64,000 nt of DNA from Pseudoxanthomonas composti (GTDB taxonomy: Bacteria; Pseudomonadota; Gammaproteobacteria; Xanthomonadales; Xanthomonadaceae): assembly GCF_004122095.1 (NCBI RefSeq), contig NZ_SAWZ01000002.1:372001-436000 (forward strand). Direction: 5' to 3'. Of the stretch, positions 7,527 through 63,641 are shown piece after piece (position 1 is the stretch's first letter; each line of letters starts with the position of its first letter). Made by a program: the position numbers and the translations under genes. The notes below the pieces were generated by a model, which had not been told where the DNA came from, did not search any database, and was given only the letters and a program-made list of their open reading frames with translations.

Positions 7527-10313
7527 CTACTCGGGGTCGTAATCCAGATTCGAGGCCAGCCAGCGCTCGACCTGCGCCAGCTCCACGCCCTTGCGCCTGG
7601 CGTAGTCCAGTGCCTGTTCCTTGGACACGCGGCCGATCACGAAGTACTGCGACTTGGGGTGGCTGAAGTAGTAGCCGGACACTGCCGCGGTCGGCAGCAT
7701 GGCGAAGCTCTCGGTCAGGGTCATGCCGGCGTTGCCGGGCGCGTCGAGCAGGTCGAACAGCAGGCCTTTCTCGCTATGCTCGGGACAGGCCGGATAGCCG
7801 GGCGCCGGACGGATGCCGCGGTACTTCTCGGCGATCAGCGCCTCGTTGTCCAACGCCTCGGCCGCCTCGTAGCCCCAGAACTCGGTGCGCACGCGCTGGT
7901 GCAGGCGCTCGGCCAGGGCCTCGGCCAGGCGATCGGCCAACGCCTTGAGCAGGATCGCGTTGTAGTCGTCGTGCGCGGCCTCGAAACGCGCCACGTGCGC
8001 ATCGATGCCGATGCCGGCGGTGACCGCGAACGCGCCGATCCAGTCCTGCTTGCCGCTGTCCTTCGGCGCGATGAAATCGGCCAGACAGAAGTTCGGCCGA
8101 TCGGCCGGCTTGTCGACCTGCTGGCGCAGGAAGTGGAGCCGGGACCGGGGACCGGGGACCGGGGACCCGGGAGAATCAGGGGCGGAAGCAGGCGCTGCAC
8201 TTGGGCTTGCTGTTCCCGGGTCCCCGGTCCCCGGTCCCCGGTCCCGGCTCCACATGATCTCCACATCATCCCCCACGCTATTGGCCGGCCACAGCCCGAA
8301 CACGGCCTTGGCGGTCAGCCATTTCTCCTCGACGATCTGCCTGAGCATCGCCTGCGCATCGCGGAACAGCTCGCTGGCCTGCGCGCCGACCACCGCGTCG
8401 GTCAGGATGGCCGGGTACTTGCCGAACAGCTCCCAGGCGTTGAAGAACGGCGTCCAGTCGACGTAGTCCACCAGCTCGGCCAGCGGATAGTCGTCCAGGA
8501 CGGTGAGGCCGGGGGTGTTCGGCGCGGGCGGGGTGTAGTGCTCCCAGCCGCCGTCGAACTTCTGCCCGCGTGCCTTGCCCAGGGTCACCAGGCGCTTGGC
8601 GTCGCCGCGGTTCTTGTGGCGAGCGCGGATCTCGGCGTAGTCGGCGTCGTTGGCGGCGACGAAGGCGCTGCGCATGTCGCGCGAGATCAGCGACTGGGCC
8701 ACGCCGACCGCGCGCGAGGCGTCCTTGACCCAGATCGTCGGCGCGCTGTAGTGCGGGTCGATCTTCAGCGCGGTATGCGCGCGCGAGGTGGTGGCCCCGC
8801 CGATCATCAGTGGCATCTGGAAGCCCTGGCGCTGCATCTCGCGGGCGACGTGGGTCATCTCCTCCAGCGAGGGGGTGATCAGCCCGGACAGGCCGATGAT
8901 GTCGGCCTGCTCGGCGCGGGCGCGGTCCAGGATGGTCTGCGTGGGCACCATGACCCCCAGGTCGACCACCTCGAAGTTGTTGCAGGCCAGGACCACGCCG
9001 ACGATGTTCTTGCCGATGTCGTGCACGTCGCCCTTGACCGTGGCCATGATGATCTTGCCGTTGGACTTGCCGACATCGCCGGTGCGCAGCTTTTCCTCTT
9101 CGATGTAGGGCAGCAGGTAGGCCACGGCCTTCTTCATCACCCGTGCGGACTTGACCACCTGCGGCAGGAACATCTTGCCGGCGCCGAACAGGTCGCCGAC
9201 CACGTTCATGCCGTCCATCAGCGGACCCTCGATCACGTCCAGGGGGCGGGTGGCCTGGGTGCGGGCCTCCTCGGTATCGGTCTCCACGTAGGCATCGATG
9301 CCGTTGACCAGGGCGTGGGCCAGGCGCTCGCGCACCGACTTCTCGCGCCAGGCAAGGTCCTCGACCTTCTTCTCGCCCTTCTTGCCCTTGTACCGCTCCG
9401 CGATGTCCAGCAGGCGCTCGGTGCCGTCCTTGCGGCGGTTGAGGATCACGTCCTCCACGCGCTCGCGCAGCTCCGGGTCCAGGTCGTCGTAGATCGGCAG
9501 CGCGCCGGCGTTGACGATGCCCATGTCCATGCCGGCCTTGATGGCGTGGTACAGGAACACCGAATGGATCGCCGCGCGCACGGTCTCGTTGCCGCGGAAG
9601 GAGAAGGACACGTTGGACACGCCGCCGGAGACATGGCAGTGCGGCAGGGTGTCCTTGATGATGCGCGTGGCCTGGATGAAGTCCACCGCGTAGTTGTCGT
9701 GCTCCTCGATGCCGGTGGCCACGGCGAAGATGTTGGGGTCGAAGATGATGTCTTCGGGCGGGAAGCCGACCTGCTCGGTGAGGATGCGGTAGGCGCGGGT
9801 GCAGATCTCCACCTTGCGCGCGCAGGTGTCGGCCTGGCCGGTCTCGTCGAAGGCCATCACCACCGCGGCCGCGCCGTAGCGCAGCACCTTGCGGGCGTGC
9901 TCGATGAACTGCGCCTCGCCTTCCTTGAGCGAGATCGAGTTGACCACGCCCTTGCCCTGCAGGCACTGCAGGCCGGCCTCGATCACGCTCCACTTGGAGC
10001 TGTCCACCATCACCGGGATGCGGGCGATGTCCGGCTCGGACGCGATCAGGTTGAGAAAGCGCACCATCGCCTTCTCCGAGTCGATCAGGCCCTCGTCCAT
10101 GTTGACGTCCAGGATCTGCGCGCCGTTCTCGACCTGCTGGCGGGCGACCTCCACGGCCTCCTCGTAGCGCTCTTCCTTGATCATCTTGCGGAACTGCGCG
10201 CTGCCGGTGACGTTGGTGCGCTCACCCACGTTGACGAACAGCAGCTGCGGCGTGATGACCAGCGGCTCCAGGCCGGACAGGCGGGTGTAGCGGGGCGAGG
10301 GCGGGATGGGCAT
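7527..10313 (-). CDS. metH: Methionine synthase, C-terminal half (folate, B12 and reactivation domains)
   Basis: 928 aa. Pterin-binding domain ([12 protein letters not shown] near residue 27), cobalamin domain with DVHDIGKN (axial His431), and AdoMet reactivation domain ([12 protein letters not shown]). It transfers the methyl group of methyltetrahydrofolate through cobalamin; homocysteine is bound by the separate upstream protein (10436-11593), so both subunits must assemble. In the reactivation domain, about residues 688-726 are a Gly/Pro/Ser-rich insertion encoded by a perfect inverted repeat (8135-8251) between VGDDVEI and FLRQQ; E. coli MetH has a short loop there. The start at 10313 lacks a Shine-Dalgarno sequence because a repeat array precedes it. 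Confidence 0.95.
8135..8251. repeat. Perfect 38-bp inverted repeat of GGGGACC heptamers inside metH
   Basis: Left arm 8135-8172 and right arm 8214-8251 are exact reverse complements around a 41-nt loop. Each arm contains three to four 7-nt units (ACCGGGG / CCCCGGT). Total length 117 bp equals 39 codons, so the metH frame is kept. Confidence 0.95.
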
Positions 10314-10333
10314 GGGCTCGGGGATTGGGAAGG

Positions 10334-10487
10334 CGAGGAGCGAGTAACGAGAAACGAGGAACGAGGAACGAGAAACGAGGAACGAGGAACGAGAAACGAG
10401 AAACGAGAAACGAGTGAAGGCGGGCGAAGAGCGGACTAGGCTTCGGTGGTCTCTCGTTCCTCGTTCCTCTCCACTCGTTCCTCTCGC
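10334..10487. repeat. Inverted array of GAGGAAC/GAGAAAC heptamers between the metH halves
   Basis: From 10341 eleven consecutive 7-nt units of form CGAGNRA (mostly CGAGGAA or CGAGAAA) run to 10417. The opposite arm (CTCGTTCCTCGTTCCTCT and flanks) is at 10452-10487 and encodes the last residues of MetH-N. The loop holds the MetH-N stop. Confidence 0.92.
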
Positions 10488-11593
10488 AGCGCACGCGGCG
10501 CCAGTCCGGCCACGGCCTGGGCGATGGCGCGGATGTGTTCCGGCGAGCTGCCGCAGCAGCCGCCCACCAGGTTGAGCAAGCCGGCGGTGGCGAACTCGTG
10601 CAAGGTCTCGGCCATTTCCTCCGGCGTCTCGTCGTACTCGCCGAAGGCGTTGGGCAGGCCGGCGTTGGGGTGGGCGCTGATGTAGCAGTCGGCCACGTTG
10701 GACAGCGTCTCGATGTGCGGGCGCAGGTCGCGCGCGCCCAGCGCGCAGTTCAGGCCGATCGACAGCGGGCGCGCATGCATCAGCGAGGTATAGAACGCCT
10801 CGGCGGTCTGCCCGGACAGCGTGCGCCCTGAGGCATCGGTGATGGTGCCGGAGATCATCACCGGCAGCCGCGCGCCACGCGCGTCGAAGACTTCTTCGAT
10901 GGCGAACAGCGCGGCCTTGGCGTTGAGCGTGTCGAAGATGGTCTCGACCATGAGCGTGTCGGCGCCGCCGTCGATCAGGCCTTCCACCGCCTCGCGATAG
11001 GTCTCGCGCAGCGCATCGAAACTGGTGTTGCGAAAGCCGGGGTCGTTGACGTCCGGGCTGATGGAGGCGGTGCGGCTGGTGGGGCCGAGCACGCCGATGA
11101 CGAAGCGCGGCTTGTCCGGCGTGGTGGCCTCGATGGCATCGCAGCAGGCGCGGGCGATGCGGGCGCCTTCGCGGTTCAACTCGTAGACCAGGTGCTCCAG
11201 GTGATAGTCGGCCTGGCTGACCGAGGTCGCGTTGAAGGTGTTGGTTTCCACCAGGTCCGCGCCGGCCTCCAGGTAGGCCGTGTGCACGCCGGCGATCACC
11301 TGCGGATTGCTGAGCAGCAGCAGGTCGTTGTTGCCCTTCAGGTCATGACCGTGGTCGCAGCCAGGACCATGCACATGGCCCTCGACCACATGCTGGGCAT
11401 CGAAGCCACCAGCGAAGCGCTCGCCGCGGTAGTCGGTCTCTTCCAGCCTGTGCCGCTGGATCATGGTGCCCATGGCGCCATCGATGATCAGGATGCGGCT
11501 GGCCAGCGCGTCCAGCAGCAGCTGGGTGCGGTGGGGGTTGTGCCAGGGCAATGCGCCGGGACCGGGGGCCGGGGAAACGGCGGAAGCGTTCAT
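10436..11593 (-). CDS. metH: Methionine synthase, N-terminal half (homocysteine S-methyltransferase domain)
   Basis: 385 aa. Homocysteine-binding TIM barrel with [13 protein letters not shown] near residue 35 and zinc ligands in GLNCALG and GGCCGSS. It activates homocysteine for methyl transfer from cobalamin on the partner polypeptide 7527-10313, 122 nt downstream. The ATG overlaps the stop of the ArsR-methyltransferase (ATGA). The C-terminus after PRAL ([16 protein letters not shown]) is encoded by a heptamer array and is not expected in the family. Splitting of metH into two genes is, to my knowledge, common in Xanthomonadaceae. Confidence 0.93.
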
Positions 11594-11667
11594 GGGCGTG
11601 CTCCAGGTGTCGCGTTTGCTTTTGCTTTCCCGGGTCCCGGGTCCCCGGTCCCCAGTCCCGGCTCCCC
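11556..11667. repeat. GC-type heptamer inverted array across a gene junction
   Basis: Left arm 11556-11578 (GCCGGGACCGGGGGCCGGGG...) and right arm 11627-11667 (TTTCCCGGGTCCCGGGTCCC...) are imperfect inverted copies of the metH-internal element. The loop contains the overlapping stop/start of the two genes; the right arm encodes the methyltransferase C-terminus and the left arm the MetH-N N-terminus. Confidence 0.85.
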
Positions 11668-63301: not shown

Positions 63302-63312
63302 GGAACCTCCTC

Positions 63313-63543
63313 ATGTCCAAGTTCTTCCGCCGTCGCAAGTTCTGCAAGTTCACCGCTGAAGGTGTCAAGGAGATCGACTACAAGGATCTCAACACCCTGC
63401 GCCAGTACCTGACCGAGACCGGCAAGATCGTGCCGAGCCGCGTGACCGGTACCAAGTCCCGTTACCAGCGCCAGCTGCAGACCGCCGTCAAGCGCGCCCG
63501 CTTCCTGGCCCTGATCCCGTACACGGACAACCACGACGTCTAA
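63313..63543 (+). CDS. rpsR: 30S ribosomal protein S18
   Basis: 76 aa. [14 protein letters not shown] and the C-terminal [15 protein letters not shown] are canonical. Binds as a heterodimer with S6. 11 nt after rpsF. Followed by a heptamer array before rplI. Confidence 0.97.
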
Positions 63544-63550
63544 GTAGCAG

Positions 63551-63641
63551 GAACGAGTAGCGGCTTTGCCGCTAGGAACGAGGAACGAGGAGGGGGGATC
63601 TTCACTCGTTTCTCGTTCCTCTCCACTCGTTTCTCGCTCCA
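63551..63641. repeat. Heptamer inverted array between rpsR and rplI
   Basis: Purine arm 63551-63592 (AACGAGG units, interrupted by AGCGGCTTTGCCGCT, itself a small hairpin) and pyrimidine arm 63603-63641 (CTCGTTTCTCGTTCC units). It lies inside a ribosomal protein operon. Confidence 0.9.

What the first reader, a model, noticed from the sequence alone, without database searches (positions are those of the whole stretch)
8135..63641. A family of inverted heptamer arrays (GRGGANY) at about eight sites
Elements at 8135, 10334, 11556, 27943 (half), 28966, 44520/44698, 50748 and 63551 are built of 7-nt units: GGGGACC, GAGGAAC/GAGAAAC or GAGGAGT/GAGTGAG. All fit GRGGANY, so three sequence types may share one origin. 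Each full element is a purine arm, a loop, then a pyrimidine arm, so every RNA reading it meets the GA-rich arm first and can fold into a long hairpin. The heptamer period recalls cyanobacterial short tandem repeats, but here the arms are inverted. I know of no named family like this in Xanthomonadaceae.
Basis: partly seen in the sequence, partly recalled or inferred. Interest (0 to 1): 0.85.

Follow-up and report, generated by a model that had tools for sequence, protein, structure and literature searches.

The report
Paired seven-base repeats bracketing gene gaps
Short blocks made of seven-base words sit in mirror-image pairs near the edges of gaps between genes in this bacterium, and related species often keep the place but use a different word on both sides, so something seems to rewrite both edges together.

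Summary
In detail: seven of the eight sites carry purine-first inverted heptamer pairs; 27943 is a single arm. The genome (4.33 Mb, probably Pseudoxanthomonas) holds a large family. The layout is not new: GGGAATC arrays with 70 and 75 inverted pairs in two Xanthomonas genomes are in print (Rehm 2015). The word classes and behaviour seen here were not found in the parts of that paper I read. In 1.21 Mb I found 50 pairs: 35 between co-directional genes, 14 convergent, 0 divergent, 1 inside metH in frame. Arms are modules of about 30 nt with a fixed four-heptad layout. At some sites they bracket native DNA: a start codon at 11555, a terminator at lpd-LOG. Between species sites persist while the word changes on both arms: at sucB-lpd 15 of 30 genomes (own included) are armed, in at least seven classes. 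42 of 50 pairs here use words without GGG, so the published G-quadruplex idea cannot be general. Three tests for RNA-level selection were negative. Best reading: dispersed paired modules, copied and homogenised class by class by an unknown process, tolerated behind stop codons, with hairpin RNA as a consequence. New variant of a known kind.

The parts
8133..8253 (.). GGGGACC-class inverted pair inside the coding sequence of the larger metH ORF (7527-10313, minus), in frame, within the stretch that matches the MetH activation domain; 40-nt perfect arms
   Evidence: many congeners have a native stretch of about 38 nt here
10333..10492 (.). GAGGAAC/GAGAAAC inverted pair between the two metH ORFs, 10436-11593 (upstream) and 7527-10313, both minus
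11555..11675 (.). GGGGACC-class pair between an ArsR/methyltransferase ORF (11590-12594) and the metH ORF 10436-11593 (minus); ribosome-binding site and start codon of the metH ORF lie in the loop; both frames stay open; empty in the four congeners compared
27943..27996 (-). single GAGGAAC-class arm (pyrimidine on +) directly upstream of the 5'-nucleotidase ORF at 28004; congener G034 has a single GGGATT-class arm at the same place
28966..29177 (.). GAGGAGT-class pair between convergent ORFs 28004-28975 (+) and 29152-29712 (-)
44520..44657 (.). GAGGAGT-class pair, first of two tandemly duplicated copies, upstream of the FUSC-family ORF 42388-44514 (minus)
44698..44819 (.). GAGGAGT-class pair, second copy
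50748..50868 (.). GAGGAAC-class pair between asnS (50858-52258, minus) and a small ORF 50444-50746 (minus)
63551..63640 (.). GAGGAAC-class pair between rpsR and rplI (plus) with a mini-hairpin GCGGCTTTGCCGC inside the left arm

Best explanation
Shown: the elements are pairs of inverted, roughly 30-nt, sequence-conserved modules of four heptads, mostly set near the two edges of the spacer between two genes, one arm close behind a stop codon and the other before the next gene. At some sites the DNA between them is native (terminator, ribosome-binding site, start codon). Sites are shared between species while the heptad class often differs on both arms. Inferred: the modules are spread and homogenised class by class by a copying or conversion process acting in trans, such as ectopic conversion or targeted insertion at spacer edges, and most insertions survive only where neither coding sequence nor a promoter is hurt. 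The transcript then carries a long hairpin behind the stop codon, which may affect mRNA decay or read-through, but I find no sign that this structure is what selection preserves. The enzyme is unknown.
For: Fixed layout: 39 of 46 AAC arms and 15 of 23 AGT arms have the extra unit at exactly four bases; an irregular 27-nt GGGAAT sentence occurs exactly in 17 of 149 family genomes and 11 of 54 genera, 0 in the reversed control, so arms look like copied modules. Context: 50 pairs = 35 tandem, 14 convergent, 0 divergent, 1 in a CDS; median 11 nt behind the stop codon in the 35 tandem cases, measured from the detected core; chance of 0 of 49 divergent about 3e-6. Edges: in 15 gaps of 200 nt or more the pair spans on average 0.70 of the gap against 0.33 for two random points, maximum 0.58 in 20,000 draws; two pairs with outer spans of 814 and 378 nt start 16-18 nt from both stop codons. 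Native interior: start codon at 11555; a terminator-like hairpin at lpd-LOG in 6 of 10 armed and 12 of 20 unarmed genomes by strict pattern. Class exchange on both sides: sucB-lpd and lpd-LOG; at C12:357143 the interior aligns between classes, score 24 against a maximum of 20.5 in 300 shuffles. Sites shared: 5 of 7 mappable G034 clusters fall in gaps armed here, against 18 of 209 gaps, P 5e-5. Same class in both arms: 32 of 33 strict pairs.
Against: No enzyme or intermediate was found, and none was looked for. Some arm pairs are perfect copies of each other (8133-8253 here; lpd-LOG in G015 and G016), which points to local inverted copying. Interiors at 8135, 169021 and 358749 do not align between this genome and G034 beyond shuffles. 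Class does not simply follow the lineage: this genome and the more distant G036 share class at 4 of 5 shared sites. Some exchanges may come from recombination of whole regions: RplI here is closer to G036 (93%) than to G026 (87%) or G034 (89%), the reverse of AsnS. Some sites may be hot spots filled independently. Five of the 15 long gaps are spanned by less than 0.6.
Confidence: 0.5

Rival explanations
1. RNA function: the pair is kept as a long intercistronic hairpin (REP-like mRNA stabiliser, attenuator or partial terminator); any hairpin will do, so classes and even unrelated inverted repeats replace each other.
For: Positions behind stop codons; strong folds; 29 of 30 loci (own included) fold into some hairpin in the rpsR-rplI slot, of several unrelated kinds, no shuffle control; pairing is kept through class changes.
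Against: Stem mismatches on the sense strand of 31 tandem elements: 35 G.U against 27 A.C, P 0.37. The relaxed four bases do not covary (1.66 own matches against 2.09 shuffled, n=32). Arms fit other elements' arms about as well as their own partner (AAC 21.8 own, 23.6 cross, n=23; AGT 25.5 and 24.7, n=11; ACC 27.9 and 27.8, n=5). The AsnS-tree sister G026 has no strict pair in 300 kb, against 10 in 456 kb here with the same detector. 17 of 30 asnS slots are 41 nt or shorter and hold no such repeat.
Confidence: 0.22
2. Compact mobile cassette (MITE or REPIN-like): arm-interior-arm moves as one piece by a transposase, interiors then decay.
For: Copies dispersed in gaps, nested elements (C18:144005 has AAC outside, AGT and a REP-like repeat inside), empty sites in relatives.
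Against: Interiors look unrelated between most copies while arms are conserved (by eye; two neighbouring pairs of copies are alike); native DNA inside at some sites; single arms are not palindromic; outer span up to 814 nt with arms at the gap edges.
Confidence: 0.13
3. Ordinary heptanucleotide microsatellites grown by slippage, paired by quasi-palindrome correction (one arm copied from the other by strand switching).
For: Seven-base period; some perfect arm pairs, at 8133-8253 with flanking letters, and in G015 and G016.
Against: Fixed four-heptad layout; irregular 27-nt sentence in 11 genera; own arms not more alike than foreign arms.
Confidence: 0.1
4. G-quadruplex elements as proposed for GGGAATC repeats in Xanthomonas.
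For: GGGGACC and GGGAWTS arms have runs of G-tracts; published CD spectra for GGGAATC repeats (PMC4692102, abstract and passages).
Against: GAGGAAC and GAGGAGT words have no GGG, yet they make up 42 of 50 pairs here (28 of 33 strict pairs plus one mixed); the same slots hold GGG words in congeners.
Confidence: 0.05

Closest known systems
GGGAATC / GGGGA(C/T)T heptamer repeats (Rehm et al. 2015, PMC4692102)
   Same: Heptads, preference for four units, dispersed, intergenic, near stop codons, mostly between aligned genes, few between divergent genes, convergent inverted pairs, 83% of sites shared between two species.
   Different: Here most words have no G-tract, several classes coexist, two classes have a relaxed second heptad, arms can bracket native DNA, and class differs on both arms between species at the same site; none of these was seen in the parts read.
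REP / REPIN / SMAG palindromes (search listings and recall)
   Same: Many copies in gaps, inverted pairs; REP-like repeats occupy some of the same slots in congeners.
   Different: A single arm here is not a palindrome and shows no GTAG or CGTC tag; interior not conserved.
TAACTGA heptamer repeats of Beggiatoaceae and cyanobacteria (PMC4679880, abstract in part and found passages)
   [quoted passage not shown] mostly just before start codons.
Short tandemly repeated heptanucleotides of Calothrix (cited in PMC4692102)
   Same: Heptamer period; in Nostoc the word is GGGGA(C/T)T.
   Different: According to PMC4692102 only a few paired repeats in Nostoc.

Membership tests
Rehm GGGNATC heptamer repeats | two or more heptads with at least one GGGAATC | tested here: not met
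   The window's elements are GAGGAAC, GAGGAGT and GGGGACC; the GGGAWTS pattern has 43 hits in this genome and is found in 77 of 149 family genomes
Rehm GGGNATC heptamer repeats | intergenic, rare between divergent genes | tested here: met
   49 of 50 pairs intergenic, 0 divergent
Rehm GGGNATC heptamer repeats | about four units, convergent inverted pairs | tested here: met
   four-heptad layout; order 16 to 0
Rehm GGGNATC heptamer repeats | four G-tracts able to form G-quadruplex | tested here: not met
   no GGG in the AAC and AGT words, 42 of 50 pairs; by sequence only; GGGGACC and GGGGATT pairs do have G-tracts
REP / REPIN | unit is itself a palindrome with GTAG or CGTC tag | tested here: not met
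   arms are purine-rich without the tag, by reading; the definition is recalled and from search listings
REP / REPIN | partner RAYT transposase | not tested
   no such search run
MITE | conserved interior between terminal inverted repeats | tested here: not met
   interiors look unrelated by eye; no all-against-all comparison run
MITE | target site duplication | tested here: inconclusive
   the empty site at 11555 shows no clear duplication, but the comparison is between species
Rfam families | match at gathering score | tested here: not met
   0 matches in the window

The most novel reading that the evidence does not exclude
Many Xanthomonadaceae carry an unrecognised genome-writing process that places and overwrites matched four-heptad arms at both edges of gene spacers. 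Similar inverted GAGGAAC arms in a Gemmatimonadaceae bin, a Gemmataceae bin and Prevotella bins would make it a widespread bacterial process rather than a family curiosity.
Probability: 0.2. Interest if true: 0.85.

Novelty: new variant of a known kind. Interest (0 to 1): 0.62.

Why it matters
Rehm et al. left the function of heptamer repeats open and favoured quadruplex structures. The commonest words here lack G-tracts yet sit in the same slots, so that idea cannot be general, and attention moves to how both arms come to carry the same word around native DNA. A copying process that edits both edges of gene spacers would be a new force in bacterial genome evolution, and shared slots with different words make it directly testable in close strains.

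Tried and rejected
Plain period-7 detection was too strict and its script ended in an error; replaced by heptad seeds. Tests for RNA-level selection (G.U against A.C; covariation of the relaxed bases; own against foreign partner) were negative. A first mismatch count that ran into loops also gave no clear bias (92 to 84) and was replaced by the trimmed count, which uses the 41 of 50 pairs with an interior of at most 130 nt. The column conservation (53 AAC arms) is partly built in, because its search pattern fixes many of the positions; I rely instead, which anchors on two units only. The relaxed bases looked anti-correlated between partners, but a hand count on the aligned arms weakened this and I do not use it. 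I first took the rpsR-rplI class difference as proof of in-place rewriting, then downgraded it because the region may have been exchanged between species. Looking for an arm-flanked gene as a carrier: the two distant arm pairs examined held no called gene; no wider search was made. I first called the 8135 site a MetH linker; the domain match places it inside the activation-domain stretch. The reversed control of the GAGRAGT pattern is not valid because that word reads almost the same backwards. Agreia (L034) matched the partner pattern only by one short match and is left out. Rfam gave nothing at gathering score. Literature searches showed no other direct precedent in their listings; one search matched 13,001 papers by short letter strings and is uninformative. 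PMC2267715 does not hold the word Xanthomonas; PMC3733652 was searched for genus names only.
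Full report
OBSERVATION. The reported elements are present at the stated coordinates and far above chance (22 overlapping tandem heptad matches against a mean of 0.42 in 50 shuffles). The genome has 142 exact GAGGAACGAGGAACGAG and none read backwards. One correction: 27943 is one arm, not a pair.

WHERE. G000 has 4.33 Mb in 24 contigs. A congener's contig has the same length (1,572,505) as a Pseudoxanthomonas yeongjuensis record, so the genus is probably Pseudoxanthomonas; the species is not known. 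Gene names rest; sucB is my name for the ORF next to lpd that matches 2-oxoacid dehydrogenase acyltransferases.

ANATOMY. In 1.21 Mb (C1 1-400000, C12 1-456000, C18 1-357500) I catalogued 71 elements: 33 strict pairs, 17 pairs found by aligning a partner, 21 single arms. Four of the singles form two wider pairs, and some are chance: the reversed control gave 7 singles and 0 pairs in 856 kb. The 33 strict pairs are 18 AAC, 10 AGT, 3 ACC, 1 ATT and 1 mixed. All 50 pairs by the class of their first arm: 29 AAC, 13 AGT, 6 ACC, 2 other. Arm order in 856 kb: purine-first 16, pyrimidine-first 0, same strand 3. AAC and AGT arms share one layout, unit-N4-unit-unit (the extra unit is at N4 in 39 of 46 AAC and 15 of 23 AGT arms that hold two tandem units). 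Interiors look unrelated between most copies by eye. Other repeats, including REP-like ones, are nested in some interiors.

CONTEXT. With my own codon-usage gene caller, 49 of 50 pairs are intergenic: 35 between co-directional genes, 14 between convergent genes, none between divergent genes; 1 is inside metH in frame. Divergent gaps hold 23% of gap bases, chance about 3e-6. In the 35 tandem cases the median distance behind the stop codon is 11 nt, measured from the detected core, not the outermost heptad. Among 15 gaps of at least 200 nt with a strict pair, the pair spans on average 70% of the gap; ten span 0.6 or more and five less; the null of two random points is simple.

BRACKETS AROUND NATIVE DNA. 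At 11555 the four congeners compared are empty, and the ribosome-binding site and start codon of the metH ORF lie inside the pair; the upstream ORF now ends at the ATGA overlap and the downstream frame stays open through the right arm. At lpd-LOG, 10 of 30 genomes (own included) are armed by my reading, and a hairpin of the same kind is found inside the pair in 6 of 10 armed and in 12 of 20 unarmed by a strict pattern; one unarmed hit (G027) lies deep in a longer gap and is doubtful; two further armed genomes have an imperfect version by eye. The interior aligns between this genome (ACC) and G034 (GGGAAT): 24 against a maximum of 20.5 in 300 shuffles. At dnaK-dnaJ, where the arm classes are similar, the score is 32.5 against 15.5. 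At 8135, 169021 and 358749 the interiors do not align beyond shuffles.

CLASS CHANGE AT SHARED SITES. At sucB-lpd, 15 of 30 genomes (own included) are armed by my reading: AAC (G000, G036), AGT (G012, G008, G007), GGGAAT (G015, G022, G034), GGGATT (G001, G035, G024), GTGATT (G021, G023), GGGACY (G033), GGGAGR (G010). Left and right agree in 13 of the 15; G024 is mixed GGGATT/GTGATT and G007 is degenerate. The other 15 hold other inverted repeats or simple hairpins. Against G034, 5 of 7 arm clusters that map to a gap fall in gaps armed here, against 18 of 209 gaps (P 5e-5). Five further G034 clusters did not map to a gap, one of them being the metH site, also armed here; with G036 it was 2 of 2 mapped (3 clusters), with G021 1 of 2 (4 clusters), with G026 none mapped (2 clusters). 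Class differs from G034 at four of those five gaps and at metH, but agrees with the more distant G036 at 4 of 5 shared sites, so class is not a simple lineage mark. The single arm at 27943 is AAC here and GGGATT in G034. With one strict detector: 10 pairs in 456 kb here, 6 in 300 kb of G034, 0 in 300 kb of G026, 3 in 100 kb of G036, 0 in 100 kb of G021. At 8135, 4 of 30 loci carry heptad arms, 6 carry other inverted repeats by eye, 20 show none.

DISTRIBUTION. Of 149 family genomes drawn evenly from a larger group, GAGRAAC is found in 16, GAGRAGT in 18, GGGACCS in 18, GGGAWTS in 77. The irregular GGGAAT sentence is in 17 of 149 and 11 of 54 genera, but not in this genome. In an incomplete scan of named genomes, 21 of 80 listed loci have a strict inverted partner within 350 nt, among them 6 of 7 loci of one Gemmatimonadaceae bin, one Gemmataceae locus and two Prevotella or Prevotellaceae loci.

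MECHANISM. If pairing in RNA were what is selected, sense-strand mismatches should favour G.U over A.C, and free positions should covary. They do not (35 to 27, P 0.37; 1.66 against 2.09). Arms match foreign arms of their class about as well as their own partner. What is conserved is the sequence of the module. Class differences on both arms then ask for a copying process in trans. I commit to that reading at 0.5, with RNA function as the main rival. Some perfect arm pairs (8133-8253; G015 and G016 at lpd-LOG) suggest that local inverted copying also takes place. G-quadruplexes cannot be the common function, because 42 of 50 pairs here use words without a G-tract.

PRIOR ART. Rehm et al. 2015 (PMC4692102) found 186 and 183 GGGAATC arrays in two Xanthomonas genomes, 70 and 75 inverted pairs, intergenic bias, four-unit preference, 83% of sites shared between the two species, and no assignable function. 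I saw no mention there of other word classes in xanthomonads beyond GGGANTN variants, of bracketing of native DNA or of class change, in the parts read.

Noticed in passing
window 63641-63708 and the rpsR-rplI spacer of 35 loci: A conserved leader before rplI (CATTCGGACAGC ... GCTAACGAATACGGAG) with no Rfam match at gathering score in the window; possible ribosomal-protein leader.
   Followed up: no
window 44480-44820: About 178-bp tandem duplication carrying the element and the 5' end of the neighbouring FUSC-family gene.
   Followed up: no
window 8135 site in 30 loci: Several unrelated inverted-repeat families inserted at the same point of the metH coding sequence; the seven insert lengths I checked against the 38-nt native stretch are multiples of three.
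   Followed up: partly
window 7527-11593: Methionine synthase is split into two ORFs, with repeat elements at the split, inside the larger ORF and at the start of the smaller one.
   Followed up: partly
sucB-lpd spacer of about ten congeners: A different family, CCCTCTCCC ... GGGTTGGGGTGAGGG ... CACCTTCTCCC, occupies the slot where others have heptad arms.
   Followed up: no
asnS slot in G009, G029, G037, G006: CGTCATCCCAGCGAAAGCTGGGATCC-type inverted repeats resembling dRS3-type repeats (name recalled).
   Followed up: no
L040, L055, L064, L082, L099, L101 (one Gemmatimonadaceae bin), L065, L041, L074: Inverted GAGGAAC arms in other phyla.
   Followed up: partly
G000 rplI region: RplI is closer to G036 than to the AsnS sister species, suggesting exchange of this region between species.
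   Followed up: partly
window 7203-7321: REP-like inverted repeat followed by 16-nt tandem copies AGCCGCTCTCACAGCG.
   Followed up: no
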